Assembly (NCBI RefSeq): GCF_900299535.1
Contig: NZ_OMKE01000039.1
Span: 124,001 to 188,000, forward strand
Source of the DNA: Aquimarina aquimarini
Lineage (GTDB): Bacteria; Bacteroidota; Bacteroidia; Flavobacteriales; Flavobacteriaceae
Length of the DNA: 64,000 bases
Reading direction: 5' to 3'
Below, in pieces: positions 47,124 through 58,889 of the stretch; within the stretch, counting starts at the first letter, position 1; each line of letters starts with the position of its first letter. The notes under the pieces are model-generated. The model searched no databases. It worked only from the letters and a program-made list of their open reading frames with translations, and had not been told where the DNA came from. The position numbers and the translations under genes are program-made.

Positions 47124-48566
47124 TTATGATAATCGTTCTCTTATTTGTTGTAATGTATCATCAACAACCAATTTACCATCTATAAACACTGTTTGCAAAA
47201 GCCCTTCTTCTTCCTCTGCTTTGGTTACCTGATCTTTATAAACAATCTCACCATTGTGTTCGTATAGTTGAATACGACCTTTTGCAGATTTTTTGGTACC
47301 GTCATCGGTAATAGGATCTTTAAAAATTTCTCTTCCTTCTCCATTCACTTCTACATATGTTGCTTTCATAGCAAACCCAAAAGTATCTCTAGTGTTATAT
47401 TGATATGTAAAACTACCGATTCCTAAAACTACATTGGTAGAGGCAAATCCTTTTTGTTTTAGACGTTCACATATTTGTGTAGCTCTCTCCAGTGTAATAC
47501 TATCACCATAAATAGCTCCTATCTTAGGATCAAGCACTTTATAGCCTTGTTCGTTTATGGTTCCTCCAAACTCATCCCATAGCAATTCTATTACACCTTT
47601 GGCTACGACAGGGTTTTCATGCTCACATCCACAGATTATATCTACTGGATCTCCAGAATCTGGTCTTATTACTAGTTTACCATCACGTTCTAGTATTTCT
47701 TGTTTTAATTGTGGCAAGTACTCTGTAAGTACTTTCCATAAATCCCAGGTATCAGATACTACAGACAGGATTCCTGTAGGATACGTATCTAGTAGCCTTT
47801 TGAATGTACCTATCTCATCATCTTTACTACCTGCACACATAACACTATGCTCTGTTGCATTCACACTACCTATCACAAGTTCTTTGGTTACATCAGCATT
47901 ATAAAAAACCTCATATGCTTTGGCTACTGGAAGGGTATCACTCCCAGAAAACGATAATGCATGTCCCATTCCACTTAGTAATGACGATTCTGTACCAGAC
48001 ATTCCTCTCATGGAGAAATCATGACCCTGCCAGGTTACAAATTCCTGATTTGCCTGATCCGTTTCTTTTGCATATTGATTTAGTATTTTTTTGTATTGTT
48101 TTGCAATGGTTGCAGAAGTGCAGGGTTGCCAGATAATACAAGATAATAATGTCTCTAGGTAGTTTGTCAACCAAAAAAACTCTGGTTTGGTATTGACCAT
48201 TGTAAACATAGGTACTCGTATGGGTACTTCTGTGCCTTCTGGTATTGCTTTTATTTCTATAGGTAAATATCCCAAGTCATGCAATGCTGCTATGTGAGCT
48301 ATATCATAATCAACTCCTAGGTAATGGTCTACATATTTTTTGTATTCTGCTGTTACTTTTACTTTGGGTTGTTCAAAAAACTCTTGATTAAATCGTTTGA
48401 TCAAATATTCCTTGACAAAATATTGTAATCCAAAAAATACTACTTTATCAACTCCTTCTACTCTACTCTTACGTGGTGTCCAATTAGAATATACCAAAGT
48501 AGTTCCTTGTGGATATTGTTCTTTGTGACCTAATTTATAACCGTCTGTTAATAGTAATGGATTCAT
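47124..48566 (-). CDS. nadV: Nicotinamide phosphoribosyltransferase (NAMPT/NadV type)
   Basis: 480 aa, the size of NAMPT. MNPLLLTDGYKLGHKEQYPQ, then SNWTPRKSR at the N-terminus and VSDTWDLWKV, RPDSGDPVD in the barrel, match the nicotinamide-specific NAMPT branch. It makes NMN from nicotinamide and PRPP. It is a single gene, but its promoter carries a perfect NrtR-type operator (48579-48599), linking it to the ADP-ribose operon 4 kb away. Confidence 0.9.
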   Translation of the reverse strand: MNPLLLTDGYKLGHKEQYPQGTTLVYSNWTPRKSRVEGVDKVVFFGLQYFVKEYLIKRFNQEFFEQPKVKVTAEYKKYVDHYLGVDYDIAHIAALHDLGYLPIEIKAIPEGTEVPIRVPMFTMVNTKPEFFWLTNYLETLLSCIIWQPCTSATIAKQYKKILNQYAKETDQANQEFVTWQGHDFSMRGMSGTESSLLSGMGHALSFSGSDTLPVAKAYEVFYNADVTKELVIGSVNATEHSVMCAGSKDDEIGTFKRLLDTYPTGILSVVSDTWDLWKVLTEYLPQLKQEILERDGKLVIRPDSGDPVDIICGCEHENPVVAKGVIELLWDEFGGTINEQGYKVLDPKIGAIYGDSITLERATQICERLKQKGFASTNVVLGIGSFTYQYNTRDTFGFAMKATYVEVNGEGREIFKDPITDDGTKKSAKGRIQLYEHNGEIVYKDQVTKAEEEEGLLQTVFIDGKLVVDDTLQQIRERLS

Positions 48567-48578
48567 ACTTAAATTTAT

Positions 48579-48599
48579 TTTGCGTTAATCATACGCAAA
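48579..48599. promoter_or_regulatory. NrtR-type operator upstream of nadV
   Basis: TTTGCGT-TAATCAT-ACGCAAA, perfect 7-bp arms around 7 nt. The core GCGT-N7-ACGC is found with the same spacing at the nrtR start (58868-58882) and, in two imperfect copies, at the PRPP-synthetase-like gene (57700-57714 and 57752-57766). Confidence 0.78.
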
Positions 48600-48626
48600 T
48601 ATATATTATTTTTTCGAGTAGTCAAA
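48596..48626 (-). promoter_or_regulatory. Bacteroidota-type promoter of nadV
   Basis: On the minus strand: -33 TTTG (plus coordinates 48623-48626), 19-bp spacer, then -7 TATATTTG (48596-48603), exact matches to the Bacteroidota sigma consensus. The -7 element overlaps the NrtR operator, so binding should block it. Confidence 0.72.
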
Positions 48627-48765
48627 ATAAATAAGTTTAATTTATAAATTTTTGAATAAAAATAAAGGCTCATTATTTTAGAGCAAAATACTTGTAATTT
48701 TATTTAAAAAAAAATAATTTTGACAGCATACAAAACTCAACTTAGGCCTATAAAAACAAAATCAT

Positions 48766-50463
48766 ATGATACGGCTACTTCTTTTTTTATCTACTTTTTT
48801 TATTGTCTTTAATTTTTATGGGCAACGACAGAAAAAAATAGATAAAATAATTGTCAAAGGGCGTATATATCAAAATGCGTATGTTTATAAACAAGATCCT
48901 ATTGCTCCAAGATCATTTATTGATCCTTTAACCCCTTCAAAAATTACAAATTTTCATAGGAACTCCCAGTATCGTGTTCTTTCCTATAAAAAAAGGACAA
49001 TTAAGAATAAAAAAAGTGGTTCTTCTTCTACGTATGTTATTGAGTTCAGTTTCTTGCCTGAGAATGACCTAAGTTATTTCTTTGAACGTTTTTCGAATAA
49101 AGCATATTACGAAACAAAAGCTACTGGATTACTACCTTTTTTTAAAAAAGAAGGACAATTTGTTTTTGAAAATTTTGAAACATCTGCTTGGACTGGAGAG
49201 GTTCAAAATGGGAAATTACATGGTAAAGGTGTTGGAATGATCAATTATGATAACAACCCTATATTTTTTGAAGGTGTATATGACCAAGGAATTCCTGTAG
49301 GAGAGGTATTTGTACAATTTGTTCACATTAAAACAAATTACAATCGTACTGGTTTTAGTTTAAGAAAAAATATTGATAAATATAAGGTAGTAGTAGATAA
49401 GGATGGAAATTTTAAACTGGAAGTCCTTCAAAAAGATATTAAAAGAAATACTCCTATAGTTACTAAAGTAGATGGGCAAATCAATTCTTCTGGAATTGTA
49501 AAATTAAACTCCCATAAAAAGTCTGAACAGTTTTATCACGATAAAGCGATGACACTAGTAAGAGAAAAAAAGCTTGATGAATTAAAAAAATTAGCTGAAA
49601 AAACTCATTCATATGGTTTTCCTGAATCGTATTATCTAGAAGGAATATATTATTTGCATTCTGATGAGTTTTTAGCCAACTCTTCTGCAGAAAAACAATT
49701 TAAGCTTGCTTTGGAAAAGAATGTACATCTGGCAAAATTCCAATTAGCAAATTTATATCTTAACAATGATAATTTGGATAAGGCTGAACGCTATTTTGAT
49801 CTATTTTTTGGAGAGACCAAAAAAAATGAAAATACCTATTATTTTTCTTATGGAAAATATTGGGAGAAAAGAGGAACTAAGCCTGAATATATGACCAAAG
49901 CGGCTGAGAATTATTACAAAGCCTACCAAATAAGTGGTAGTTTGGATGCTCTTTTTATGGCTGCAGCTTCTATCGTAAAAAGTGATGCTCCTGATAAAAT
50001 GAAAAAGACTTTAGAGTCGACAAATGAATTGGTAAACAAAGGATACAAGATGGCTACTAATATTGATCATCTGTATTCGCATATTGATGTATCCTCAACC
50101 GATCTTATGTATCTTCAATGGAATACCCAACGAAGAAAGAACCTGGGAACAGTTTATGAAGGTGATGAATTATGTTTCAGAGGTGGTTTTACTGTAGTTG
50201 GCAAAAATGGATTATACAACTTTAATAGTACTGCAGTAATTGAAGCAATCAACCCTAATAATAAAAAGGTAAAGATTAGAATTAAGGAAAATATGACCAC
50301 TTCTAGTGGATATAAGTATGATTTGTTAATGGCTATGGGTTCAAACCCTATGAGTGAAAATACCAGTGTAAATGGATATGGTGCTACAGTGTATCATTCT
50401 TATAATTTTAGTCCGTATGTTTGGATTTCATTAGATACCCCAAAATGGTTTACATGTAAGTAA
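48766..50463 (+). CDS. Secreted protein with MORN-like and TPR-like segments
   Basis: 565 aa. Signal peptide ends near FYGQ. Around residues 145-180, TGEVQNGKLHGKGVGMINYD reads as MORN repeats; later (about 255-395) TPR-like helices occur (YYLEGIYYLHSDEFLANSS). No family assigned. It is divergent from nadV and its gap includes the NrtR operator, so it may respond to it, but it is not otherwise linked. Confidence 0.65.
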   Translation: MIRLLLFLSTFFIVFNFYGQRQKKIDKIIVKGRIYQNAYVYKQDPIAPRSFIDPLTPSKITNFHRNSQYRVLSYKKRTIKNKKSGSSSTYVIEFSFLPENDLSYFFERFSNKAYYETKATGLLPFFKKEGQFVFENFETSAWTGEVQNGKLHGKGVGMINYDNNPIFFEGVYDQGIPVGEVFVQFVHIKTNYNRTGFSLRKNIDKYKVVVDKDGNFKLEVLQKDIKRNTPIVTKVDGQINSSGIVKLNSHKKSEQFYHDKAMTLVREKKLDELKKLAEKTHSYGFPESYYLEGIYYLHSDEFLANSSAEKQFKLALEKNVHLAKFQLANLYLNNDNLDKAERYFDLFFGETKKNENTYYFSYGKYWEKRGTKPEYMTKAAENYYKAYQISGSLDALFMAAASIVKSDAPDKMKKTLESTNELVNKGYKMATNIDHLYSHIDVSSTDLMYLQWNTQRRKNLGTVYEGDELCFRGGFTVVGKNGLYNFNSTAVIEAINPNNKKVKIRIKENMTTSSGYKYDLLMAMGSNPMSENTSVNGYGATVYHSYNFSPYVWISLDTPKWFTCK

Positions 50464-50553
50464 ATATCTATTTATACAGATCTGTTTATTGGTTGTAGCT
50501 CATATTTGTTGACTACCTACAAAGCGGTTGTTTCACTTTTATAGCTAGGTTTG

Positions 50554-51612
50554 TTATTCATCATCTTCAGGATAGAGTGTTTTTACATATGCCTCAAAAA
50601 CTTCTTGAAATGTATCTACATTAGTCTTTTCTTCTTTGATCTTTTTACTGTCTTTGAATATTTGATAATAGCCTTCTTTTTTATCATTCAAAAAACGAAT
50701 TCCGTTTTTAATTGTACCATCGTTGTTTGTAACAAAGTACCCCATTATTTTTGAAGAATGATCGTAAGTTCTTTCTTCTATAAAATCTTTCCCAGAAATT
50801 AAAGAGTTTTTAAACTGTTCAAAGATCCCCCATTGTTTTTTTGTAGACTGTACATCTATTTGATTAAAAATCCTTAACATCAATTCTGATTTACTATACA
50901 CTTCTTCTGATGTATCAAAATTTTGATATGCTATTCCTTTTACAATTCCTTCTTCTTCATACATTCTTATATCACTATCTACGGGAAAAACAGATTGGTC
51001 TTTATTAACACTTTGTACTCTGGTTAGTATGACATCATTATTCAATAATTCTGCTACTACATTTTGGTTTTTTTGAAAAACTCGAATGCTCTGGTCTTTT
51101 TCTCTAAACGACTTGATAGTAATAGCATCATTTTCTTTCTTAAAATGTATTCTATTATAATAATGTACCGCAAAAATATCGACATAAACCCCAATAACGA
51201 TTCCTTTTTCATACTCTTCTGTTACAATTCTGTCTTTTGCCTTGTATAGCTTTACCCCTGTATAAATTTCATCATTTTTATAAGTAGTTTTTACATTTAA
51301 TTCTGATTCCATTCCTCCATCAAACATATGCATCACATCTAATGAGTATGTATATTTCTTTATTCCTTTTTCATAATAATCTACTGTAAAAAACTCGTCT
51401 TCTCCTTGCTTAAAATACCCTTTGTATGGTTTCTCTTCTTTATAAGTTCCTTCATAAAAATCCTGAGGATTTTCTAAGATTACATAAGAGCTATCTCTTT
51501 TAATTTGTTCCTTTTCTTGTGCTTCCATATAATTATATTGAAAAATAACCAGAACTATTACCAGAGTTTTATAAAAAATGCTAGGGGATATTTCTTTTGT
51601 ATATAAACTCAT
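50554..51612 (-). CDS. Secreted protein of unknown function
   Basis: 352 aa. Signal-like N-terminus (YKTLVIVLVIFQYNYMEAQ). Rich in YEKG/FKQGE-type turns (YKGYFKQGEDEF, YEKGIKKYTYS), resembling MORN/YwqK-like repeats, but no firm family. Lies 190 bp downstream of the phosphatase gene, so probably a separate transcript. A C-run motif sits 50 bp upstream (51664). Confidence 0.6.
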   Translation of the reverse strand: MSLYTKEISPSIFYKTLVIVLVIFQYNYMEAQEKEQIKRDSSYVILENPQDFYEGTYKEEKPYKGYFKQGEDEFFTVDYYEKGIKKYTYSLDVMHMFDGGMESELNVKTTYKNDEIYTGVKLYKAKDRIVTEEYEKGIVIGVYVDIFAVHYYNRIHFKKENDAITIKSFREKDQSIRVFQKNQNVVAELLNNDVILTRVQSVNKDQSVFPVDSDIRMYEEEGIVKGIAYQNFDTSEEVYSKSELMLRIFNQIDVQSTKKQWGIFEQFKNSLISGKDFIEERTYDHSSKIMGYFVTNNDGTIKNGIRFLNDKKEGYYQIFKDSKKIKEEKTNVDTFQEVFEAYVKTLYPEDDE

Positions 51613-51802
51613 AATTCTTGATTTTTTAAAAAGACTAAGGTAGAATCATTCATGTGCTTTATACCCCCTGTTTTCAGTTAAAATATAATTTTTTAAAACA
51701 CTATTTTTGGGTATTAATTACATGTTGAGGAATCATAAAGATATAGTAAAAAAGTGTGTTGTTCTTTTTTTAAGGATCGATTTTTGTCCTGTAATAGTAA
51801 GT

Positions 51803-52543
51803 CTAATTCCTTCCTTTTTCTGTTGGGTATAATGAGGGTAGCGGATCACTTTGCCAAAAATCTTTGGTGTCTATATCTAGTATTGTAAGTTTACCAGTAA
51901 AAGCGGTACCTGTATCAATGTTCCATAAGTTGTATGCTTTTATTGGGGTATCTCTATCATGGTGTATAGTAGGTGTATGACCTATATATATTTCTTTATA
52001 ATGATTTAGTCTTTTGGGTTTGGTTAGAATATCTTCTAGAGTATGCTTGTCTACTTTATCTGCCAATAATGCCGATTCCCACAATGTTCTATCCCAATAG
52101 TAATTAGATTCATACTCCTCACGCCCTACTCCATGCATTGAAGTAAATCCTGCATGTAGAAACAATCTGTTATCCTGATCTATATAATAGTTTTGTAGGG
52201 TATTAAAAAAGGGTTTATGAGTATATGTATATAGGGATTGATACCCTGATTGGATATAACTGTTTATAGTTTCTTTTCCCCCATGAGCCATCCATATAGG
52301 GTCTGTTACTCCTGTTTCTAACCACGATCCACACCAAAAATCATGATTTCCTCTTATAAAAATACAGGTATTTGATTGCGATAGCTCGATTAATTTTTCG
52401 ATTGTTTCTACTGCTTCACTCCACCCATCTACATAGTCTCCCAAAAAGATCAATGTATCATTGGGGGTTACATCTGCCCTATCTAGCACTTGAAGTAATG
52501 CTTTACATCCGCCATGTATATCCCCTATTACTAGCGTTCTCAT
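51803..52543 (-). CDS. PPP-family metallophosphatase (ApaH/Ser-Thr phosphatase-like)
   Basis: 246 aa. Metal motifs GDIHGG (7-12), GDYVDG (about 35-40) and RGNHDFW (about 64-70) define the PPP phosphoesterase fold. The substrate could be a dinucleotide, a phosphoprotein or an ADP-ribose phosphate; the last fits because the preceding gene is KptA, which yields ADP-ribose cyclic phosphate. It is the last gene of the ADP-ribose operon, starting 21 bp after kptA. Confidence 0.8.
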   Translation of the reverse strand: MRTLVIGDIHGGCKALLQVLDRADVTPNDTLIFLGDYVDGWSEAVETIEKLIELSQSNTCIFIRGNHDFWCGSWLETGVTDPIWMAHGGKETINSYIQSGYQSLYTYTHKPFFNTLQNYYIDQDNRLFLHAGFTSMHGVGREEYESNYYWDRTLWESALLADKVDKHTLEDILTKPKRLNHYKEIYIGHTPTIHHDRDTPIKAYNLWNIDTGTAFTGKLTILDIDTKDFWQSDPLPSLYPTEKGRN

Positions 52544-52564
52544 ACTACAATCACTTTACATTTT

Positions 52565-53107
52565 TTATTTAAAATGAATGTACTCAGGAAGTACGGTATC
52601 GGTTAACCAAACACCGTTTTCTGATTGAAAAAACTCAATTCCCTGAGCATACATTTCTCCTGACCTAATAGTTAATATAATAGGTTTTCCTCTTCTTGAA
52701 CCTACTTTTGTAGCTGTTTCTAGTTCCTCACTAAGGTGTACATGATGTCTATTCATTTTGAGTAATCCCTGCTGCTTGATTGCAGGCATAAATTTTGCTA
52801 CAGTACCATGATATAAATATCCTGGTGGTTTTATGGGTTTATATTCTAAATCAACGGTTATAGAATGTCCTTGATTTGCTCTTATTTTTGATTGATCGTC
52901 ATTAAAAGCAAAACGTTTTTTATCGTTGGTATCAACAATTTCTTGTAATATATCTCTATCTAGTTGTGGCTGGTGTTTTTTTACTTTTATTAGTAATTCA
53001 TCTACATTAGCCCAACCGTTTTGATCTAGTTGTAATCCTATTTTATCGGGATTATGCCTAAGAATAAGGCTTAAAAATTTACTTATTTGTTTATGGTTTG
53101 GTTTCAT
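52565..53107 (-). CDS. kptA: RNA 2'-phosphotransferase (KptA/Tpt1)
   Basis: 180 aa. ISKFLSLILRHNPDKIGLQ and YLYHGTVAKFMPAIKQQGL, then HHVHLSEE, are KptA signatures. It moves a 2'-phosphate from RNA to NAD+, releasing nicotinamide and ADP-ribose 1''-2'' cyclic phosphate. It overlaps the preceding 2OG-oxygenase gene by 17 bp, so it belongs to the same operon. Confidence 0.92.
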   Translation of the reverse strand: MKPNHKQISKFLSLILRHNPDKIGLQLDQNGWANVDELLIKVKKHQPQLDRDILQEIVDTNDKKRFAFNDDQSKIRANQGHSITVDLEYKPIKPPGYLYHGTVAKFMPAIKQQGLLKMNRHHVHLSEELETATKVGSRRGKPIILTIRSGEMYAQGIEFFQSENGVWLTDTVLPEYIHFK

Positions 53108-53654
53108 TTTTTAATTTTTTATACATAATATCGCTTCGCAATACGTATTTAACCCCATCCTGTATAGGAGTACTTTCATGTTTTTGTTCGTGGATAAAAC
53201 ATAATGCTTTTCCTTGAACTGGGTGAATGGTAAGGTCATCAAATTTTGTTTTACCTCCTGTAAAGTTATCGTTCAAATAAACGAGAAAAGTGATTCTACT
53301 CTCTTCTTCTTCATTTCTTTTAAAACGACCATCTATATGTCTTTTAAATTTTTGCCCAGTATCGTATTTATAAAACCTGAACCTTTCGTTTAATCCACCT
53401 ATTCTCATATTTCCTACCCGTGTGGGAATAAATGAAGCTAATTTTAACCAAATCTTATCCCTAAAATTACTATCCTCATAAATCAAACGTTCATTATTCC
53501 TAACGTTTTTCATTATTTTGGCTCCTGTTGCTAGGCTAACGTCTGCTTCATCATACCCTTTATGCTCGCTAAATAAAATGAGGTCTTCGCACTCTTTTAT
53601 AGAAAGAAAATTATCTATAGTCCATATTTTATCAGTTATTTTATGAAGTTTCAT
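53091..53654 (-). CDS. 2-oxoglutarate/Fe(II) oxygenase (prolyl 4-hydroxylase-like)
   Basis: 187 aa double-stranded beta-helix enzyme. The iron triad reads HIDGRF (HxD) and a histidine in HEQKHEST, with the 2OG-binding arginine in YVLRSDIMY. Prolyl-hydroxylase-type members occur near ADP-ribose and RNA-repair genes. Overlaps kptA by 17 bp and lies 11 bp after the macro-domain gene. Substrate unknown. Confidence 0.82.
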   Translation of the reverse strand: MKLHKITDKIWTIDNFLSIKECEDLILFSEHKGYDEADVSLATGAKIMKNVRNNERLIYEDSNFRDKIWLKLASFIPTRVGNMRIGGLNERFRFYKYDTGQKFKRHIDGRFKRNEEEESRITFLVYLNDNFTGGKTKFDDLTIHPVQGKALCFIHEQKHESTPIQDGVKYVLRSDIMYKKLKNETKP

Positions 53655-53665
53655 AGTTTACTATT

Positions 53666-54178
53666 TTATTCTGATATTAATGTTGTGTACTGCTCAAAGT
53701 TTTCTTGATCAAAACATACAAAGATTACTTCTTTTATTATTTTTTGTTGTTTGTATTCTTTAATAGTTTTTATTGCAATTTGTGCAGCTAATTCTTTTGG
53801 AAACCTATAAATACCTGTACTTATCCCTGGAAAAGCTATAGTACTTATTTTATTGTCTAATGCAAGATTCATTGTGTTTTTATAACAATCTGCCAATAAC
53901 ATTTCTTTTTCCTTTCCTCCTTGATTCCACACAGGTCCTACTGTATGAATCACATATTTTGCGGGTAGATTACCAGCTGTAGTTATTACCGCTTCTCCTA
54001 CTTTACATTTCCCTTGTTTTGCTCTGATAGCTTGACATGCTTTTAGGATTTCCTCTCCTCCTTTACGGTGGATGGCACCATCTACCCCTCCACCCCCTAA
54101 AAGAGAAGAATTTGCCGCATTTACAATAGCCTCAGTGTCTATTATTGTTATATCTGATTGAATTACTGAAATTTTCAT
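53666..54178 (-). CDS. Macro domain ADP-ribose hydrolase (MacroD/YmdB type)
   Basis: 170 aa, a single macro domain. [19 protein letters not shown] (about 20-38) and [10 protein letters not shown] are the ADP-ribose loops; this is the MacroD/YmdB type, which removes mono-ADP-ribose or deacetylates O-acetyl-ADP-ribose. In the operon, it directly follows the decayed second macro gene (54182-54386). Confidence 0.92.
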
Positions 54179-54181
54179 GTT

Positions 54182-54386
54182 CTATTCAAAATCATACCCA
54201 TATACCTATATATTATTGTTTAGCAATGCTTCTACTATTATGGATTCTATTTTTTCCCACTTTCCACCCGCTAATCCACAACTTATTCTAGGCATATGTA
54301 TATTTGCTTCTAATTTTTATGCTTCAACAGCAATTTACTCCTTTAACGTTTGGAGCTGTAGCATCTCCTTTTATGTAATGTGTCAT
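54182..54386 (-). pseudogene. Decayed TARG1-like macro domain gene
   Basis: On the minus strand from the ATG at 54386: MTHYIKGDATAPNVKGVN, the usual start of TARG1/OARD1-type macro proteins, then a stop. A shifted frame continues as EA-stop-KLEANIHMPRISCGLAGGKW, EKIESIIVEALL, then a TAG, VYGYDFE and the final stop. That is the C-terminal end of the same family. The middle (about 90 codons) is deleted and two in-frame stops remain. The remnant starts 2 bp after the DUF4291 stop and ends 3 bp before the macro gene, so it was once an intact operon member. Confidence 0.82.
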
Positions 54387-54388
54387 AT

Positions 54389-55024
54389 TCATTTTAACAT
54401 TAGGTATGTATTTAATTTTTCATCCTCAAAAACCAATGGTTTTTCTTTAGGAATCATGAGTTTATCAATATTTTGAGATTTCACTAATTGATATTGCTCG
54501 TTAACAAATGCTGAGATATCTTCGATTTCTATAATATCTTCTTGTGCAAATGATTTTATAAACTCTTTTCTCAACCCTATTTGTATGGCTCTTCGTTCTA
54601 GTTTAGCTCCGTATGGATCATGGTCTGGGTCCCACTGCAATCGTATATTTGATTGTTGTATATCTTCTTGCCATGATTCATAGGATGTATACAATTCTGG
54701 TTTGAAAGAAGAATATACTGCATTTTTCAGGTATTTTTCAAAAACCTTTTTTTTGAGGTGTATTGCCAAGACTACTTCTTGTCCTTCTTTGGTTCCCCAA
54801 CCATTACGATACATCATCCATAAAAAATTTGGCTTGATCCATGTCATTCGTTCCAGACTGAATGCTCCTCCGAAATACTGATTCTTTACTGCAAAATTTC
54901 CTATTTCAGGTCGATACGACTGGTACACTACAATTTTATCATCATTATATTGTCCCATAATATGATATCCTTGTTGTGGCCACTTTTTTTGTTGTTCTGT
55001 ATATTTTTCTAATTCTAATTTCAT
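54389..55024 (-). CDS. DUF4291 protein
   Basis: 211 aa. YNDDKIVVYQSYRPEIGNFA, then MTWIKPNFLWMMYRNGWGTK, and RRAIQIGLR are typical of DUF4291, a family without known activity. Its ATG overlaps the TIGR02452 stop (TAATG), so it is coupled in the ADP-ribose operon. Expected to act on ADP-ribose or NAD derivatives only by context. Confidence 0.82.
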   Translation of the reverse strand: MKLELEKYTEQQKKWPQQGYHIMGQYNDDKIVVYQSYRPEIGNFAVKNQYFGGAFSLERMTWIKPNFLWMMYRNGWGTKEGQEVVLAIHLKKKVFEKYLKNAVYSSFKPELYTSYESWQEDIQQSNIRLQWDPDHDPYGAKLERRAIQIGLRKEFIKSFAQEDIIEIEDISAFVNEQYQLVKSQNIDKLMIPKEKPLVFEDEKLNTYLMLK

Positions 55025-55848
55025 TACTCAAATTCATTTTGAAAAGCTTCTAAAAACTTTTTATTCTTAGCATAAATTGCAAAAACTACTTTTTTGAATA
55101 CTCCTTTATATTTATTTTTCAACAATTCTGAAAATAATCTGGCTATCATTTTTGGTTCGTTTTGAAATACGCCACACCCCCAAGCTCCCAAAATGAGGGT
55201 ATCGTGTTTATATAGTGTTGATAATGCTAAAAGTTTATCTATTCGTATCCTCATAATTTCTTCTATTGCCGATATTTTATGAGATTCAAAACGTTTTACT
55301 ACCCCTGTATTTACTGCGGCAGATGTTATTATAGAACTCTGCAATGGTGTCTCTAGTAATTGACCATTATCTTTTCTAAAAACAGGTACCTTGGGGCTAT
55401 AAATCATTCCATCTGTATAGATACAGGATTTCATTCCTCTATGTAGTTCATAAAACTCTATTGCCGAAATCTGACAGGGATATAAGCCTGAAGATCTTGC
55501 TATACTTTCTTCTTGTGCTTGTGCGCCATTAAAAAAACCACCTCCTGGATTTTTTGCCGAAGCAAAATTTAAACACATCGGGTTATTATATCCTTCTTTT
55601 ATAAGCCTTTGAACACTCTGAATAGTTGTCTCTTCAACAACTTCAAATGATGTGTCATGGTTGTTAGGCATTTCTAGATCATTTACTATAGTATCTAATT
55701 CTTGAGAAGAATAATATTTGGTTCCTTGAACGGCTTCTTCTTGTATTTTGGCAATAGAAACTTTGATACTTTTGTCAAATATATAGAACCCTTGCTCTGT
55801 AATTTTAAGGGTTTCTTTTGCTGTTATTTTTCGTAATGTTTTTTGCAT
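55024..55848 (-). CDS. TIGR02452 / microbial PARG-like protein
   Basis: 274 aa. VQRLIKEGYNNPMCLNFASAKNPGGGFFNGAQAQEESI holds the GGG-x6-QEE poly(ADP-ribose) glycohydrolase signature, with the tandem glutamates in AQEESIARSS. LILGAWGCGVFQNEP is the second conserved block. The family is a bacterial macro-fold PARG relative that cleaves ADP-ribose links. 22 bp after NADAR and coupled to DUF4291. Confidence 0.88.
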   Translation of the reverse strand: MQKTLRKITAKETLKITEQGFYIFDKSIKVSIAKIQEEAVQGTKYYSSQELDTIVNDLEMPNNHDTSFEVVEETTIQSVQRLIKEGYNNPMCLNFASAKNPGGGFFNGAQAQEESIARSSGLYPCQISAIEFYELHRGMKSCIYTDGMIYSPKVPVFRKDNGQLLETPLQSSIITSAAVNTGVVKRFESHKISAIEEIMRIRIDKLLALSTLYKHDTLILGAWGCGVFQNEPKMIARLFSELLKNKYKGVFKKVVFAIYAKNKKFLEAFQNEFE

Positions 55849-55870
55849 TTTTTAATTTCTTTTATAGTCC

Positions 55871-56419
55871 TCATGGACTTAATTCATCTCTGACTTCCAT
55901 TAGAACAAACCCTAATAGATTTTGTCCTCTCCACAGGTTAGGGTTTTGTGCTTTTTCATTGCTTTGCCCCATACCAATCCCCCAAATTCTATCTCTTGGA
56001 CTGGCTTCTACCAATACTTGCTTTTTTGTACTCAACAAAAATTCTTTTAGATCTTTATGTTGAGAAAACTTATATAGGTTTCCTTCTTTTACTATTTGAT
56101 ATTTATGTTGGTTCCAAACTTCTGGGTCAAAATTCTTTACTTTTCTTCCTAGCTGTTTGGCTTCCATAGGGTCATTACATGCTATTATTTGTTTTTGTAT
56201 ATCGGTATCTCCAAATAGTTTTGCTTTTCCTGCCATCATCCAATGTTCAGCTGTTTTATAAGTTTCTTGATCTACTATAAAGGCAGATTTCCACCATTGG
56301 CTGAAACAGCTTTTTCCTATACTGCCATCTTTATTGGGTGTATGCCCCCAGAAAAATAGGTATTTGATACTTTTTCCTTTATTGAATTGTTCTTGTATTC
56401 CTTGTAATGTGTATTTCAT
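55871..56419 (-). CDS. NADAR-family protein (YbiA/DUF1768)
   Basis: 182 aa. FFWGHTPNKDGSIGKSCFSQWW and YKTAEHWMMAGKAKLFGD, then NLWRGQNLLGFVLMEVRD, are the NADAR signatures. The superfamily removes ADP-ribose from guanine bases or cleaves N-glycosidic bonds of riboflavin intermediates. The operon context favours ADP-ribose. It overlaps the deoxyribosyltransferase-like gene by 4 bp. Confidence 0.9.
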   Translation of the reverse strand: MKYTLQGIQEQFNKGKSIKYLFFWGHTPNKDGSIGKSCFSQWWKSAFIVDQETYKTAEHWMMAGKAKLFGDTDIQKQIIACNDPMEAKQLGRKVKNFDPEVWNQHKYQIVKEGNLYKFSQHKDLKEFLLSTKKQVLVEASPRDRIWGIGMGQSNEKAQNPNLWRGQNLLGFVLMEVRDELSP

Positions 56420-56874
56420 TTCAATTCCTTCTTTACTTTCTCAATTAACTCCTCTATGGTATCTACTTGTTTAATATTGTAATGTTCGCATACAATATCT
56501 ACATTTCCTTTTCTCCAAAATCCTTTTGGGCAACATACGGTCAACTTTTTACTTTTTGCAAACAGTCCCAATTCTAATAATGTTATGGGGGACTTTGTGG
56601 TTTTATCAAAGTACATAATAATCATATCTGCTTGCTCTAATGCTTGTAACTCCCAAGTTACTTGCTCTTTAAATATTGGGTTGCTTATTTCTTGTTTCCA
56701 ACTACTATCCCAACTTAACCTTCTGGGGTTTAATATTACTATTTCTTCTTTGGTCAGGTTTTGGATAATAATATCCTGCCATTTGGTTGCTTTGTCTCCT
56801 TCTATACTTCCTGCTAGAAAGACACTGAATTGGTTGTTTATATTTACTTCTTCTGGGGCTTCTATTACGTTCAT
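56416..56874 (-). CDS. Nucleoside 2-deoxyribosyltransferase-like protein
   Basis: 152 aa. SVFLAGSIEGDKATKWQ, ILNPRR and IIMYFDKTTKSPITLLELGL follow the nucleoside deoxyribosyltransferase-like fold (Nuc_deoxyri_tr2), where the glutamate in LLELGLFA would be the nucleophile. Relatives cleave or transfer N-glycosidic bonds of nucleosides. In this operon it could act on NAD or ADP-ribose derivatives (inference). It begins at the last base of the PRPP-synthetase gene. Confidence 0.8.
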   Translation of the reverse strand: MNVIEAPEEVNINNQFSVFLAGSIEGDKATKWQDIIIQNLTKEEIVILNPRRLSWDSSWKQEISNPIFKEQVTWELQALEQADMIIMYFDKTTKSPITLLELGLFAKSKKLTVCCPKGFWRKGNVDIVCEHYNIKQVDTIEELIEKVKKELK

Positions 56875-57695
56875 TACTGTATGGGTATCTGTACTACTTT
56901 TTCTTCTGTAATATCTCTAAAAGAGTTTGTTGTATATACAGTATCAAAACTTTGTTGTACTACTGTTGTTCCTTTACTAAAAATACCGTGACTTACGATT
57001 AAACTAAGTCTTCCTGCATTTTTATCTTTAAGTGCTTTTGCTAATCCTAAGAAAGTTCCTCCTCCGTCACATATATCATCTACTATCACACAGTGTTTTC
57101 CTTCTAGGTCTTCTTGATATACTGTAAAACCAGATAACTGACCTGTTTTGACATCTCTTTTTTTAGAGCATTCTACTACTTCTATTCCGCCTAGGTATTC
57201 AGAAACTTTATAAATCTTTTTTAGTGCTCCTCCATCTGGAGAGATTAGTAAAACATCCTCATTAATTGTATCTAAGCATTGTTTTACAAAGTCATAATTA
57301 TGAATCACTTTTACATTGTTTAGCAATGCGGGGGTTACTTCAGAATGTGGATCAAAAATGGTTACCTGATCGTATTGTTGCGCATTGATACAATCTGCAT
57401 ATACTTTTACTGATAAGGGTTCTCCGGCTACCATCACTCTATCTTGCCTTGCTGCTGGAAAATAGGGTATAAATACATTTATAATTTTTACATCCATTCT
57501 TCTTAGTGCATCTGTTGCAATAAGTAGCAACCCTAGATCATTAAATGAATTGATACGGTGTGTTATGGTTATTTCTTCTCCTATGTTTTGCTCTAAAATT
57601 TTTATATGAGGTTCTCCCCCATTAAACACAAAGGCTTCAAATACTATAGATTCTTTATATGGGGTAAATGCTGGATCAAGATGTAAATACTTCAT
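56874..57695 (-). CDS. Short ribose-phosphate pyrophosphokinase-like protein
   Basis: 273 aa from the ATG at 57695; a TTG 21 bp upstream lies inside the -7/operator region. Shorter than the usual ~315 aa. IPYFPAARQDRVMVAGEPLSV matches the flexible loop of PRPP synthetases and VIVDDICDGGGTFLG the PRPP-binding loop. It would make PRPP for NAMPT. Phage NARP1 uses a homologous pair (Adps and Namat) to turn ADP-ribose plus nicotinamide into NAD+, so the true substrate here is open. First gene of the operon, behind an NrtR-type promoter. Confidence 0.85.
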   Translation of the reverse strand: MKYLHLDPAFTPYKESIVFEAFVFNGGEPHIKILEQNIGEEITITHRINSFNDLGLLLIATDALRRMDVKIINVFIPYFPAARQDRVMVAGEPLSVKVYADCINAQQYDQVTIFDPHSEVTPALLNNVKVIHNYDFVKQCLDTINEDVLLISPDGGALKKIYKVSEYLGGIEVVECSKKRDVKTGQLSGFTVYQEDLEGKHCVIVDDICDGGGTFLGLAKALKDKNAGRLSLIVSHGIFSKGTTVVQQSFDTVYTTNSFRDITEEKVVQIPIQ

Positions 57696-57699
57696 AATT

Positions 57700-57714
57700 G
57701 TGTTATTTTTACGC
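57700..57714. promoter_or_regulatory. Imperfect NrtR-type operator, site 1
   Basis: GTGT-TATTTTT-ACGC, the GCGT-N7-ACGC pattern with one mismatch, overlapping the -7 element and leader of the PRPP-synthetase-like gene. Confidence 0.55.
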
Positions 57715-57745
57715 AAATTTAGAATACTATTTATATTCTACCAAA
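57714..57745 (-). promoter_or_regulatory. Bacteroidota-type promoter of the ADP-ribose operon
   Basis: On the minus strand: -33 TTTG (plus 57742-57745), 20-bp spacer, -7 TAAATTTG (57714-57721). The predicted start of transcription is about 13 nt before the ATG at 57695. Flanked on both sides by NrtR-like half-palindromes. Confidence 0.72.
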
Positions 57746-57751
57746 TATTTT

Positions 57752-57766
57752 GCGTAAAAATTACAA
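57752..57766. promoter_or_regulatory. Imperfect NrtR-type operator, site 2
   Basis: GCGT-AAAAATT-ACAA, a good left half and a weak right half of the GCGT-N7-ACGC pattern, just upstream of the -33 element of the ADP-ribose operon. Confidence 0.45.
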
Positions 57767-57890
57767 TAAAATAAATTCCTTGCTTATATATACCCTATTT
57801 ATGCTTAAAATATTGACACACTTAATTGAACACTACCTTATATAGTTGAATCTTTATGACACACTTTAATGAACAGTCTCTAGCTTCATG

Positions 57891-58121
57891 TTGCCCAAGC
57901 ATTGCTTCACGTTGCCCAAGCATTGCTTCATGTTGCCCAAGCATTGCTTCATGTTGCTCAAGCATTGCTTCACGTTGCTCAAGCATTGCTTCACGTTGCT
58001 CAAGCATTGCTTCACGTTGCCCAAGCGTTGCTTCACGTTGCCCAAGCATTGCTTCACGTTGCTCAAGCATTGCTTCACATTGCCCAAGCATTGCTTCATG
58101 TTACTCAAGTTTTACTTCATG
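57891..58121. repeat. 21-bp tandem repeat, 11 units
   Basis: Eleven adjoining 21-bp units in the gap between the ADP-ribose operon and nrtR; the last is degenerate and a partial unit precedes the first. The consensus is TTGCCCAAGCATTGCTTCAC plus G. Most variation is C/T at positions 5 and 20, with single changes at 11 and 21. Units are GC-richer than the surroundings and have a short dyad AAGCATTGCTT. No spacers, so it is not a CRISPR array. The rest of the gap (57767-57890 and 58122-58195) shows nothing else. Confidence 0.93.
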
Positions 58122-58195
58122 TATTATTTCACTAAATGGTATCTATAAGAAAGCATAGTTATTATTAAAAAGACAGAGATCGTTAAGAAAAATAA

Positions 58196-58876
58196 CTACT
58201 TTATATCAAACAGAAACCCTTCTCTTTTTAGGGTGAAGTATTGTTTTTTATTGAATCTAAAGAGGTTTGCAGGTCTTCCTCTTCCTTCAGATACTTTTTC
58301 GTCTAGTTCTTCTAGTATATCAAAACTGAGTATTTTCTTTCTAAAGTTTCTTCTATCTATTTGTTTTTCTAAAATGATCATATACAGTCGTTCTAGATCA
58401 GAAAACAGAAATTTATCTTCTAATAAGTCAAACCCTATGGGTTCGTATGTTAGTTTATTTTGTAGTCGTTCTTTTGCTTTTTGTAAAATCATTTTATGAT
58501 CAAAAGCTAACTCAGGGAGTTTTTGAAGATCAAACCAGGCTACATCTTTGGCATCTGTATCTGCTTTGATTTTATGATGTTCTGGTTTTACCAATGCAAA
58601 ATAGGTAATACTTATTACTCTATTTCTAGGGTCTCTATCGGGTGTACCAAAAGAATATAACTGCTCCATATAATCTACAGTTACATTGGTTTCTTCTTTT
58701 AGTTCTCGTTCTACAGCGTGTTCTAAACTTTCATTTTCTACTACTAATCCTCCTGGTAATGCCCAAGAATCCTTAAAAGGATCAATGTTTCTTTTGATTA
58801 ATAATACATTTAATGATTTGTCTTTGTATCCAAAGACTACTGCATCTACGGCGACTTTAATATTTTGGCGTATCAT
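58196..58876 (-). CDS. nrtR: NrtR-family Nudix-HTH transcriptional regulator
   Basis: 226 aa. N-terminal Nudix domain with GGLVVENESLEHAVERELKE (the Nudix box continues ETNV, so the usual Gly before the final hydrophobic is Asn), C-terminal winged helix (LDEKVSEGRGRPANLFRFNKK). NrtR represses NAD genes and is released by ADP-ribose in studied bacteria. A GCGT-N7-ACGC operator overlaps the start codon, so it represses itself. Flanked by the ADP-ribose operon. Confidence 0.88.
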   Translation of the reverse strand: MIRQNIKVAVDAVVFGYKDKSLNVLLIKRNIDPFKDSWALPGGLVVENESLEHAVERELKEETNVTVDYMEQLYSFGTPDRDPRNRVISITYFALVKPEHHKIKADTDAKDVAWFDLQKLPELAFDHKMILQKAKERLQNKLTYEPIGFDLLEDKFLFSDLERLYMIILEKQIDRRNFRKKILSFDILEELDEKVSEGRGRPANLFRFNKKQYFTLKREGFLFDIK

Positions 58877-58889
58877 ATACGCAAAATTA
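58868..58889 (-). promoter_or_regulatory. nrtR promoter -7 element with operator over the start codon
   Basis: Operator GCGT-ATCATAT-ACGC (58868-58882) contains the nrtR start codon at its centre. TAATTTTG on the minus strand (plus 58882-58889) is a full match to the -7 consensus; transcription would start at or next to the ATG, so the mRNA is probably leaderless. No good -33 element is visible. Confidence 0.6.

What the first reader, a model, noticed from the sequence alone, without database searches (positions are those of the whole stretch)
47124..58889. A single NrtR-controlled NAD+/ADP-ribose metabolism island
Nine intact genes in one minus-strand operon (PRPP-synthetase-like, deoxyribosyltransferase-like, NADAR, TIGR02452, DUF4291, macro, 2OG oxygenase, KptA, PPP phosphatase), plus nearby nadV and nrtR, all act on or near NAD+, ADP-ribose or 2'-phosphate RNA ends. 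Operator sites tie them together. KptA consumes NAD+ and releases nicotinamide; macro, PARG-like and NADAR proteins can release ADP-ribose. ADP-ribose is the known NrtR inducer in studied bacteria, so damage or attack that uses NAD+ could switch on both cleaning of ADP-ribose marks and NAD+ resynthesis. Gene families are known; the integrated system is inferred.
Basis: partly seen in the sequence, partly recalled or inferred. Interest (0 to 1): 0.8.

Follow-up and report, generated by a model that had tools for sequence, protein, structure and literature searches.

The report
ADP-ribose to NAD+ recycling operon
A marine bacterium appears to carry, under one ADP-ribose-sensing switch, both enzymes that strip ADP-ribose off modified molecules and a two-enzyme pathway, best known from phages, that turns the freed ADP-ribose straight back into NAD+; this gives a testable job to a pathway whose role in bacteria is unknown.

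Summary
In detail: nine intact minus-strand genes (51803-57695), a nadV-like gene, nrtR and NrtR-type operators. Two identities change. "nadV" is Namat: 59% identical to the crystallised phage SPbetaL1 Namat, with its published signature GSFTYQYNTRD. The "PRPP synthetase" is probably Adps: a separate full-length Prs exists, and all 18 Adps-bearing genomes of 249 carry Namat. The pair is NARP1, which rebuilds NAD+ from ADP-ribose plus nicotinamide. The NrtR-Adps-[ADP-ribose enzymes]-Namat cluster recurs in Bacteroidota: of 80 Namat loci (best matches, many related), 66 have Adps, 61 NrtR too, 55 an ADP-ribosyl hydrolase; of 11 canonical Nampt loci, 7 have NrtR but 1 each Adps-like or hydrolase genes. 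53 of 64 Adps promoters carry two NrtR sites 51-54 bp apart (0 in 20 randomised sets); the window has the pair, degenerate, 52 bp apart. DUF4291 is predicted to have an ADP-ribosyltransferase fold nearest to RNA-targeting RhsP2. Best reading: an ADP-ribose-induced regulon that removes ADP-ribose marks and recycles the freed ADP-ribose directly to NAD+. Regulation and activities are inferred, not measured. Novelty: new variant of a known kind.

The parts
47124..48566 (-). Namat (nicotinamide ADP-ribose transferase; annotated family NadV/NAMPT)
   Evidence: 59.1% identity over 99% to SPbetaL1 Namat; signature GSFTYQYNTRD; PDB 9w5w/9w5x 628 bits against about 221-251 bits for other NAMPT-type chains apart from 9ke8; 19 of 20 NAD+-contact residues identical
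48582..48596 (.). NrtR operator of Namat, exact palindrome GCGT-TAATCAT-ACGC
50554..51612 (-). gene of unknown function between PPP and Namat; weak homologs in the same place in 10 of 80 loci, so possibly a passenger of the cluster
   Evidence: no Pfam match
51803..52543 (-). PPP-type metallophosphoesterase, candidate cyclic-phosphate opener for the KptA product (role inferred)
   Evidence: present in 39 of 42 KptA-bearing Adps loci
52565..53107 (-). KptA/Tpt1 NAD+-dependent RNA 2'-phosphotransferase
   Evidence: Pfam 187 bits, NCBIfam above cut-off
53091..53654 (-). 2OG-Fe(II) oxygenase, role unknown
   Evidence: also in 25 of 80 related loci
53666..54178 (-). Macro domain hydrolase
   Evidence: 167.6 bits
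54389..55024 (-). DUF4291, predicted ADP-ribosyltransferase fold (RhsP2-like)
   Evidence: model pLDDT 96.3; Foldseek 7rt7 E 4.4e-5, prob 1.00
55024..55848 (-). bacterial-type PARG (PF10021/TIGR02452)
55871..56419 (-). NADAR (guanine ADP-ribosyl hydrolase family)
56416..56874 (-). nucleoside deoxyribosyltransferase-like (PF15891), possible N-glycosidase of an ADP-ribose derivative (inferred)
   Evidence: PF15891-type gene also in 37 of 80 viral Namat loci
56874..57695 (-). Adps (ADP-ribose pyrophosphate synthetase; PRPP-synthetase-like), by partnership with Namat
57700..57714 (.). downstream NrtR operator of the Adps operon (1 mismatch), overlapping the -7 box
57714..57721 (-). Bacteroidota-type -7 box TAnnTTTG (TAAATTTG); TTTG -33 box at 57742-57745 (consensus recalled)
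   Evidence: sequence
57752..57766 (.). upstream NrtR operator of the Adps operon (2 mismatches), 52 bp from the first
58196..58876 (-). NrtR (Nudix + winged helix) regulator
   Evidence: PF21906 81.6 bits; ADP-ribose-type Arg84, intact Nudix glutamates; below the NF050029 cut-off
58868..58882 (.). NrtR operator overlapping the nrtR start codon (suggests autoregulation)

Best explanation
An ADP-ribose salvage regulon. NrtR sits on its operators and holds three units off: the Adps operon (two operators bracketing the promoter), Namat and nrtR. When NAD+ is consumed by ADP-ribosyltransferases, NADases or KptA-type RNA repair, and the marks are removed (NADAR from guanine, bacterial PARG from 2'-OH or phosphate, macro domain from phosphate ends), free ADP-ribose rises and NrtR lets go. 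Adps then charges ADP-ribose with pyrophosphate from ATP, and Namat joins it to the nicotinamide released in the first step, giving NAD+ without passing through NMN. [quoted passage not shown] The signal (ADP-ribose) is also the substrate, so the circuit shuts itself off; NrtR's intact Nudix centre might add to that. Shown here: genes, signatures, operator sequences, conservation. Inferred: enzyme activities in this bacterium, repression and induction, and every metabolic step.
For: Namat identity; signature in 80/80 bacterial and 76/80 viral Namat loci, 18/18 Namat-class and 0/11 Nampt-class loci of a phylum sample (the 11 read GGALLQK- or GGGLLQK-type there); tree splits Namat from Nampt with support 100. 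Adps: a separate full-length Prs is present; 18 of 18 Adps genomes have Namat and 230 of 231 others have neither (Fisher p 1.7e-26 without correction for relatedness). Cluster: of 80 Namat loci, Adps in 66, NrtR with Adps in 61, at least one ADP-ribosyl hydrolase in 55 (same strand as Namat), against 1, 1 and 1 of 11 Nampt loci. Operators: 53 of 64 tandem pairs at 51-54 bp, 0 in 20 Markov-randomised sets. NrtR: SoNrtR-type Arg in 62/62, where BtAraR has Gly. Literature seen in part: NARP1 chemistry and bacterial NARP1 activity (PMC12774641), RNA ADP-ribose erasers (PMC11833690), KptA product (PMC6333775), ADP-ribose releasing NrtR (PMC4666351, PMC6800001).
Against: No expression, binding or enzyme data. 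The Adps candidate passes the curated cut-off of the PRPP-synthetase subfamily TIGR01251 (140 against 113 bits) and is only 30% identical to SPbetaL1 Adps, so its name rests on its partner. NrtR is below the equivalog cut-off of NF050029 (147 against 400 bits) and its best solved match is an arabinose regulator. Window operators at the main operon are degenerate and not significant alone. Of 80 Namat loci 14 lack Adps in the stretch held; ten are cut short by a contig end or have cluster genes right at the edge of the stretch, four (L085, L092, L110, L114) are not; in two genomes (G122, G195) Adps and Namat lie on different contigs. 12 loci have only NrtR-Adps-Namat, so the erasers are optional. 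NrtR also sits near canonical Nampt in 7 of 11 control loci, so NrtR alone does not mark this pathway. Only 3 of 9 DUF4291 genes found in 249 genomes lie in or near such a cluster. Namat keeps NMN-forming activity with PRPP in vitro (PMC12774641), so NMN salvage is not excluded. The genome has nadA, so it likely makes NAD+ de novo too. The 2OG oxygenase and the PF15891 protein have no assigned step.
Confidence: 0.72

Rival explanations
1. Ordinary NAD+ salvage: PRPP synthetase feeds NadV, which makes NMN from nicotinamide.
For: Families are annotated so, and the PRPP-synthetase-like protein passes TIGR01251; Namat has NMN activity with PRPP in vitro (PMC12774641).
Against: Namat signature, 59% identity to a characterised Namat, and 18/18 pairing with a diverged PRPP-synthetase-like gene while a normal Prs is encoded elsewhere in the window's genome.
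Confidence: 0.06
2. A captured phage anti-defence module: NARP1 protects a resident element or the cell against NAD+-depleting immunity, and the other genes are further counter-defence parts.
For: Bacterial Namats need three label changes among phage Namats on the tree, at least two of them forced by supported branches; phage loci carry Adps 69/80, PF15891-type 37/80; a phage RyR protein feeds NARP1 (PMC13232231) and RyR-like genes occur in 2/80 bacterial loci.
Against: NrtR in 0/80 viral but 62/80 bacterial loci; KptA, Macro, ARH, DUF4291 and bacterial PARG 0/80 in viral loci at the same threshold (viral stretches are shorter, up to 6 kb a side). Nine other genes between or around the island scanned with Pfam showed no phage family (PHROGs was not run on them).
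Confidence: 0.12
3. An RNA-repair or RNA ADP-ribosylation island in which NAD+ recycling is only a support: KptA, DUF4291 (predicted writer) and the lesion-matched erasers are the point, for example immunity to RNA-modifying toxins of competitors.
For: DUF4291 fold closest to RhsP2; bacterial PARG is the eraser of RhsP2 marks and NADAR of guanosine marks (PMC11833690); KptA with PPP in 39/42 loci.
Against: Adps, Namat and NrtR are the most constant genes, the RNA-acting ones vary; none of the nine genes is an RNA ligase; DUF4291 does not obviously show the R-Y-E triad in its invariant columns.
Confidence: 0.2
4. NrtR here senses a sugar like its Bacteroides relative AraR and its location beside NAD+ genes is incidental.
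For: Best PDB match of the window NrtR is BtAraR (160.7 bits) ahead of SoNrtR (123.8 bits); PF19368 AraR_C match.
Against: Arg in 62/62 where AraR has Gly89; tandem operators lie upstream of Adps in 53/64 loci; none of the window genes next to the operators is a sugar gene.
Confidence: 0.04

Closest known systems
NARP1 (Adps + Namat) of phages and of Paenibacillus foliorum
   Same: Both genes; Namat selectivity-clamp motif; 19 of 20 listed NAD+-contact residues identical to SPbetaL1, the other Ala362 to Ser356
   Different: Here with NrtR and its operators, split into two transcription units in the window, and joined with up to ten accessory families; published bacterial NARP1 is described as a two-gene module with unknown role
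NrtR regulons of NAD+ metabolism (Shewanella, Synechocystis, Mycobacterium)
   Same: Nudix-winged-helix regulator, palindromic operators, site at its own gene, ADP-ribose-contact Arg
   Different: Predicted regulon holds ADP-ribose erasers and NARP1; tandem operators 52 bp apart; Nudix catalytic residues kept; below the NF050029 cut-off
Viral NAD+-ADPr networks and RNA-repair neighbourhoods (KptA-Macro-NADAR) of PMC9503650
   Same: Many of the same families, and the idea that KptA products are cleaned by Macro/2H/NADAR
   Different: That survey treats NadV as an NMN maker and does not mention DUF4291 or TIGR02452; no NrtR-NARP1 operon in the passages seen
RyDEP-NARP1 of phage DyoEdafos (PMC13232231)
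   Same: An enzyme that makes ADP-ribose encoded inside a NARP1 operon
   Different: Phage; a cyclic ADP-ribose glycosidase; NrtR is not mentioned
D. radiodurans ligase-PARG-phosphatase/kinase operon (PMC11833690)
   Same: PARG beside phosphatase/RNA-end enzymes
   Different: Different genes, no NAD+ recycling genes named in the passage seen

Membership tests
Namat (not Nampt) | GSX-Phi1-X-Phi2-X-Phi3-TRD motif with aromatic positions 3 and 7 | tested here: met
   GSFTYQYNTRD in the window; 80/80 bacterial loci; 0/11 Nampt control loci
Namat (not Nampt) | SCL stacking residue (Arg40 in SPbetaL1) | tested here: met
   Arg35 of the window protein aligns with Arg40
Namat (not Nampt) | Prefers ADP-ribose pyrophosphate over PRPP | not testable with these tools
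   needs enzyme assay
Adps | PRPP-synthetase-like gene distinct from housekeeping Prs, paired with Namat | tested here: met
   30% identity to SPbetaL1 Adps, 41% to ctKR88
Adps | Makes ADP-ribose pyrophosphate from ADP-ribose and ATP | not testable with these tools
   needs enzyme assay; the solved relatives listed are all named PRPP synthetases (ribose-phosphate pyrophosphokinases) or their associated proteins; TIGR01251 cut-off is passed
NrtR | Nudix domain plus NrtR winged helix | tested here: met
   PF00293 and PF21906 over cut-off
NrtR | NCBIfam equivalog NF050029 (ADPR-responsive repressor) | tested here: not met
   147.4 bits, cut-off 400; so it is NrtR-family, not shown to be that equivalog
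NrtR | Palindromic operators at NAD+ genes and own gene | tested here: met
   (sites by sequence only)
NrtR | Impaired Nudix catalytic box, as reported for characterised NrtR/AraR | tested here: not met
   all four Glu and Arg kept in 62/62; Gly to Asn in 22/62 including the window
NrtR | ADP-ribose as effector | tested here: inconclusive
   Arg81, Arg84 and His127 as in the ADP-ribose type in 62/62; position 29 Arg in 40/62, Gln in 22; binding not measured
ADP-ribosyltransferase superfamily (DUF4291) | ART fold | tested here: met
   predicted model pLDDT 96.3; 7rt7 RhsP2 E 4.4e-5, prob 1.00, TM 0.70 by target length, 0.49 by query
ADP-ribosyltransferase superfamily (DUF4291) | Canonical catalytic triad (H-Y-E, R-S-E or R-Y-E) | tested here: inconclusive
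   invariant columns hold Tyr34, Arg59, Lys64, Gln130, Asp132, Gln148, Glu194, but no residue-by-residue mapping to RhsP2 was made
KptA/Tpt1 | Family profile over curated cut-off | tested here: met
   NF002014 265 bits, cut-off 239

The most novel reading that the evidence does not exclude
Bacterial NARP1 is the NAD+-recovery end of an inducible anti-ADP-ribosylation response in Bacteroidota: one regulon holds predicted transferases (DUF4291, KptA and, in relatives, a second ART-fold family), erasers matched to each kind of nucleic-acid mark, and Adps-Namat, all switched by the freed ADP-ribose through NrtR on a promoter-bracketing operator pair. Phages would then have taken NARP1 from, or exchanged it with, this host system.
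Probability: 0.35. Interest if true: 0.88.

Novelty: new variant of a known kind. Interest (0 to 1): 0.74.

Why it matters
The authors who showed that a bacterial NARP1 works state that its physiological role needs further investigation (PMC12774641). A conserved cluster in which the ADP-ribose that NARP1 consumes is the expected product of the neighbouring enzymes, and is predicted to be sensed by the neighbouring regulator, makes that question directly testable. It also suggests that some genes annotated as nadV and prs beside nrtR in Bacteroidota need re-naming, and gives an uncharacterised Pfam family (DUF4291) a predicted ADP-ribosyltransferase fold.

Tried and rejected
Rejected: NMN salvage as the main role (Namat signature and pairing); the island gene as the housekeeping PRPP synthetase (full-length Prs at C40); a sugar-sensing AraR (Arg for Gly89 in 62/62). 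Considered and left open: PF15891 protein as a glycosidase of cyclic ADP-ribose signals (37/80 viral Namat loci, not always adjacent); the PPP enzyme as an ADP-ribose pyrophosphatase instead of a cyclic phosphodiesterase (metallophosphatases of both kinds exist, PMC3407115 passages).

PADLOC gave only partial or candidate matches. The third exact operator of the genome (C23:87049) has no clear gene context in the 3-kb stretch held, where open reading frames running off the ends were not listed. The promoter scan of sigma-70 type found no excess (53, expected 59.9) and is not made for this phylum. Of 91 family pairs tested for co-occurrence inside clusters, KptA-PPP was the strongest (conditional p 0.0015, which does not survive correction for 91 tests; unconditionally 39 of 42 against 5 of 24). 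Rodionov et al. 2008 on NrtR, which I recall as having reported nadV and prs in some NrtR regulons, is not held, nor is the original NARP1 paper; neither was seen. 'Not in print' for the NrtR-NARP1-eraser operon rests only on the searches, and on finds in PMC12774641, PMC13232231, PMC9503650, PMC11833690, PMC13036486 and PMC11125620 (passages, not whole texts).

Full report
What was given.

Check of the observation. All nine genes are intact and over the Pfam cut-off of their family. NCBIfam cut-offs are passed for KptA, TIGR02452, one macro-domain model, the NADAR-type model TIGR02464 and, for the PRPP-synthetase-like protein, TIGR01251; NrtR stays below NF050029 (147 against 400 bits), and DUF4291, 2OG and PF15891 proteins have no match. 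Most neighbours overlap or are 11-22 bp apart; the exception is 210 bp between DUF4291 and Macro, where no minus-strand terminator-like site was found. The genome is 4.94 Mb in 64 contigs. The closest named Namat loci are from Aquimarina, a marine flavobacterial genus (up to 88% identity). Exact GCGT-N7-ACGC sites occur twice in the window against 0.02 expected and at only three places in the genome (a reversed control pattern gives 4 per strand, so the count alone is not unusual, the placement is). Two of the three lie at the nadV-like gene and over the start of nrtR. The nine-gene operon has no exact site, and its degenerate pair would not stand out in the window alone (5 matches, 2.0 expected).

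The two NAD+ genes are not what they seemed. The 'nadV' protein is 59.1% identical over 99% of its length to the Namat of Bacillus phage SPbetaL1. PDB chains 9w5w and 9w5x, whose letters match that phage protein in the alignment shown (the entries are titled only 'nicotinamide phosphoribosyltransferase'), score 628 bits, a third such chain (9ke8) 472, and the other listed NAMPT-type chains 221-251 bits. Lan et al. 2026 (PMC12774641; abstract, Results and Discussion read) define Namat by a selectivity clamp with the motif GSX-Phi-X-Phi-X-Phi-TRD, aromatic at positions 3 and 7. The window has GSFTYQYNTRD, identical to SPbetaL1; of the 20 NAD+-contact residues that the paper lists, 19 are identical, including Arg40 (here Arg35), and Ala362 is Ser356. 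The motif is present in 80 of 80 bacterial loci found with the Namat alignment and 76 of 80 viral ones; these sets were found with patterns from other conserved stretches of Namat, but are still the best matches. In a phylum sample of 395 genomes, 30 had a hit at E <= 1e-40: 20 of the Namat class and 10 (11 genes) of a clearly weaker Nampt class. The motif was in 18 of 18 Namat-class loci fetched (the other two genomes were already in hand) and in 0 of 11 Nampt-class loci, which have GGALLQK or GGGLLQK and then [LV][DN]RD there. A quick tree of 103 rows (a thinned set) separates the two classes with support 100.

The 'PRPP synthetase' matches only part of the N-terminal domain model (42 bits), while a full-length Prs with 152 bits is encoded elsewhere. 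It keeps RQDR, PDxG, K-R and DD-D-G-T elements of the family (their catalytic role is recalled). In 249 genomes of the family it is present in 18 at E <= 1e-30, and Namat in the same 18 plus one more, G051, where Namat is split and no Adps was found (Fisher p 1.7e-26, relatedness ignored). It is only 30% identical to SPbetaL1 Adps, so the name Adps rests mainly on the partnership. The pair is best read as NARP1: Adps makes ADP-ribose pyrophosphate, Namat joins it to nicotinamide, giving NAD+ directly. That chemistry is published for phages and for Paenibacillus foliorum; it is inferred for this bacterium.

The cluster is conserved and modular. In 17 of 17 relatives with Adps, neighbourhoods of 20 kb (two shorter, contig-limited) show at least one other member; NrtR lies in 15 of 17 and Namat in 12 of 17 of the same stretches. 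In 80 named Namat loci (10 kb each side where available) the tallies at tblastn E <= 1e-5 are Adps 66, NrtR 62, PPP 51, KptA 47, NADAR 34, Macro 32, DUF4291 31, ADP-ribosylglycohydrolase 28, 2OG oxygenase 25, PF15891 20, a macro-like family 17, an unnamed 137-residue family 16, bacterial PARG 11, a metallo-beta-lactamase-like family 8, sirtuin 7, SLOG 6, RyR 2. These 80 are the best matches, not a random sample: by my count of the titles, 21 are Aquimarina and 12 Tenacibaculum, three are the same loci as unnamed-genome stretches L030, L034 and L252, and two more share contig lengths with G079 and G122. Of the 14 without Adps, ten are cut by a contig end or have cluster genes at the edge of the stretch; L085, L092, L110 and L114 are not, and for G122 (which seems to be L110) Adps lies on another contig. 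In L121 Adps appears in three pieces. Counting only genes on the Namat strand, 61 have NrtR and Adps, 55 at least one ADP-ribosyl hydrolase, and 12 just NrtR-Adps-Namat. NrtR-Adps come first (59 adjacent cases) and Namat usually last. Organisms with Namat loci include Aquimarina, Kordia, Tenacibaculum, Flavobacterium, Cellulophaga, Winogradskyella, Pedobacter, Niabella, Taibaiella and Aureispira. The phylum sample agrees: of 18 Namat loci, Adps 15, NADAR 14, KptA 14, NrtR 13, PPP 12. Control: of 11 Nampt loci, NrtR 7, Adps 1 (24% identity), KptA 1, ADP-ribosylglycohydrolase 1, the 137-residue family 1, NADAR, Macro, PPP and DUF4291 0. So NrtR is shared with ordinary Nampt, while the ADP-ribose genes follow Namat. 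Background is low: KptA is in 15 of 249 family genomes, in 10 of 19 with Namat and 5 of 230 without (p 1.1e-9); comparing coordinates, 8 of the 15 KptA genes lie within about 10 kb of Adps or Namat. DUF4291 is in 6 of 249, 4 of them with Namat (p 3e-4), but only 3 of its 9 genes lie in or near a cluster. Of 80 viral Namat loci (up to 6 kb each side, many contigs shorter), Adps is in 69, PF15891 in 37, macro-like in 14, PPP in 8, NADAR in 5, and NrtR, KptA, Macro, ADP-ribosylglycohydrolase, DUF4291 and PARG in none.

Operators. Of the 66 loci with Adps, 64 had at least 120 bp upstream (two at stretch edges were dropped). 53 of 64 carry two sites with at most two mismatches each, 51-54 bp apart (best pair at exactly 52 in 41; three more at 50; eight without a pair), against 0 in 20 first-order Markov-randomised sets. 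The 53 include loci of at least 15 named genera by the printed list and titles, so this is not one genus repeated. The window pair, 57700-57714 (1 mismatch) and 57752-57766 (2 mismatches), is 52 bp apart. A TTTG-N20-TAnnTTTG element, which I recall as the Bacteroidota promoter consensus, lies between them, its -7 box overlapping the downstream site. Two dimers about five helical turns apart bracketing the promoter would be an efficient lock; cooperativity or looping is inferred. Where Namat is separated from the preceding panel gene by more than 300 bp or has none (32 of 80 loci), 25 have a site with at most one mismatch within 160 bp upstream, against 20 of 48 where it is adjacent; the window is of the first kind.

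The regulator. The best PDB match of the window NrtR is the arabinose regulator BtAraR (160.7 bits), then the ADP-ribose-responsive SoNrtR (123.8 bits). At the position where SoNrtR has Arg98, which contacts ADP-ribose, and BtAraR has Gly89 (PMC4666351 passages), all 62 NrtR proteins aligned (61 loci plus the window) have Arg. Characterised NrtR and AraR proteins have an impaired Nudix box (same paper); here the catalytic glutamates and the Arg are kept in 62 of 62, with Gly replaced by Asn in 22 including the window. ADP-ribose sensing is therefore likely but not proven, and an ADP-ribose-hydrolysing activity is possible. ADP-ribose releases the NrtR of Shewanella, Synechocystis and Mycobacterium smegmatis, while the NrtR relative of Corynebacterium responds to NAD+ (passages).

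DUF4291. No paper in the library holds the word. Its AlphaFold2 model, from 27 of the 34 homologs found plus the window, is confident (pLDDT 96.3, pTM 0.91) and its best solved match is the RhsP2 toxin domain (E 4.4e-5, probability 1.00; TM-score 0.70 by target, 0.49 by query; only that entry is below 0.001), with ParT next at weak scores. RhsP2 ADP-ribosylates 2'-OH groups of structured RNA through an R-Y-E triad (PMC12340436 passages). The invariant columns of DUF4291 do not obviously show that triad, and no residue mapping was made, so the fold is predicted, the activity is not. The unnamed 137-residue family of the relatives (14 of 16 copies aligned) also resembles RhsP2 (E 5.7e-3) and KptA/Tpt1 structures (probability about 0.96), though no hit passes 0.001. 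Bacterial PARG is the family that reverses RhsP2 marks, NADAR reverses guanosine marks, and macro, PARG and ARH enzymes reverse phosphate-end marks (PMC11833690 abstract and passages). The island thus pairs predicted transferases with matching erasers.

KptA loop. [quoted passage not shown] The last gene of the operon is closest among solved structures to 4j6o (named only 'Metallophosphoesterase'; I recall it as the Clostridium thermocellum Pnkp phosphatase) and to 1g5b (named serine/threonine protein phosphatase; I recall lambda phosphatase), both at weak scores of about 32 bits. A paper passage says that C. thermocellum Pnkp hydrolyses 2',3'-cAMP, and its reference list names work on the same activity of lambda phosphatase (PMC3407115). 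39 of 42 KptA-bearing Adps loci have this gene. Opening the cyclic phosphate and removing the phosphate (macro domain; such activity is recalled) would return ADP-ribose to Adps, while the nicotinamide goes to Namat. This closed loop is inference.

Comparison and novelty. NARP1, bacterial NARP1 and NrtR are known; the virus-wide survey PMC9503650 (passages) treats NadV as an NMN maker and names neither DUF4291 nor TIGR02452. Within the searches listed under Tried and rejected, no paper describes NARP1 under NrtR together with ADP-ribose erasers; the 2008 NrtR paper was not available to me. I call it a new variant of a known kind: known parts and chemistry, a new regulated context that suggests what bacterial NARP1 is for. 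Interest 0.74: strong, convergent sequence evidence and a directly testable answer to an open question, but no biochemistry.

Noticed in passing
window 57883-58109: A 21-bp unit repeated 10.8 times (93% match) lies between nrtR and the Adps promoter; function unknown.
   Followed up: no
window 58196-58876 and NrtR of 61 related loci: The Nudix catalytic glutamates are kept in 62 of 62, unlike the NrtR and AraR proteins described in PMC4666351, suggesting the repressor might also degrade ADP-ribose.
   Followed up: partly
window 50554-51612: A gene without Pfam match has weak homologs (25-45% identity) just upstream of Namat in 10 of 80 loci, so it may belong to the cluster.
   Followed up: partly
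L030:4822-5049 (same locus as L128:9635), L033:11328-11585, L124:8301: Small genes inside bacterial NrtR-NARP1 clusters; the L033 one matches the RyR domain just below the Pfam cut-off (25.9 against 27.4 bits), the others match it by BLAST; phage RyR proteins cleave cyclic ADP-ribose to feed NARP1.
   Followed up: partly
L029:14268-14681 and 16 of 80 loci: An unnamed 137-residue family in the clusters has a predicted ADP-ribosyltransferase/KptA-like fold.
   Followed up: partly
L031:7774-9687: A SIR2_2-TPR protein, a domain make-up I recall from NAD+-consuming defence effectors, sits between Adps and PPP in one relative.
   Followed up: no
L029:10566-13726 and other loci: A recurrent cassette of two unnamed genes (111 and 286 aa) and an adenylosuccinate-synthetase-like gene inside the cluster (5 of 80 loci, 9 of 18).
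   Followed up: no
L234:8192-9216: A canonical Nampt gene with KptA and the 137-residue family on its strand, a possible intermediate arrangement.
   Followed up: no
L098: A contig labelled Saccharospirillaceae (Pseudomonadota) groups among Bacteroidota Namats; transfer or wrong binning.
   Followed up: no
L041-L043: Three flavobacteria, one (G177) of the window's own genus, carry a different Adps/Namat lineage nearer to phage Namats but still beside NrtR and NrtR-type sites.
   Followed up: partly
G000:C23:87049-87063 (L004:1501-1515): The third exact GCGT-N7-ACGC site of the genome; gene context not resolved.
   Followed up: partly
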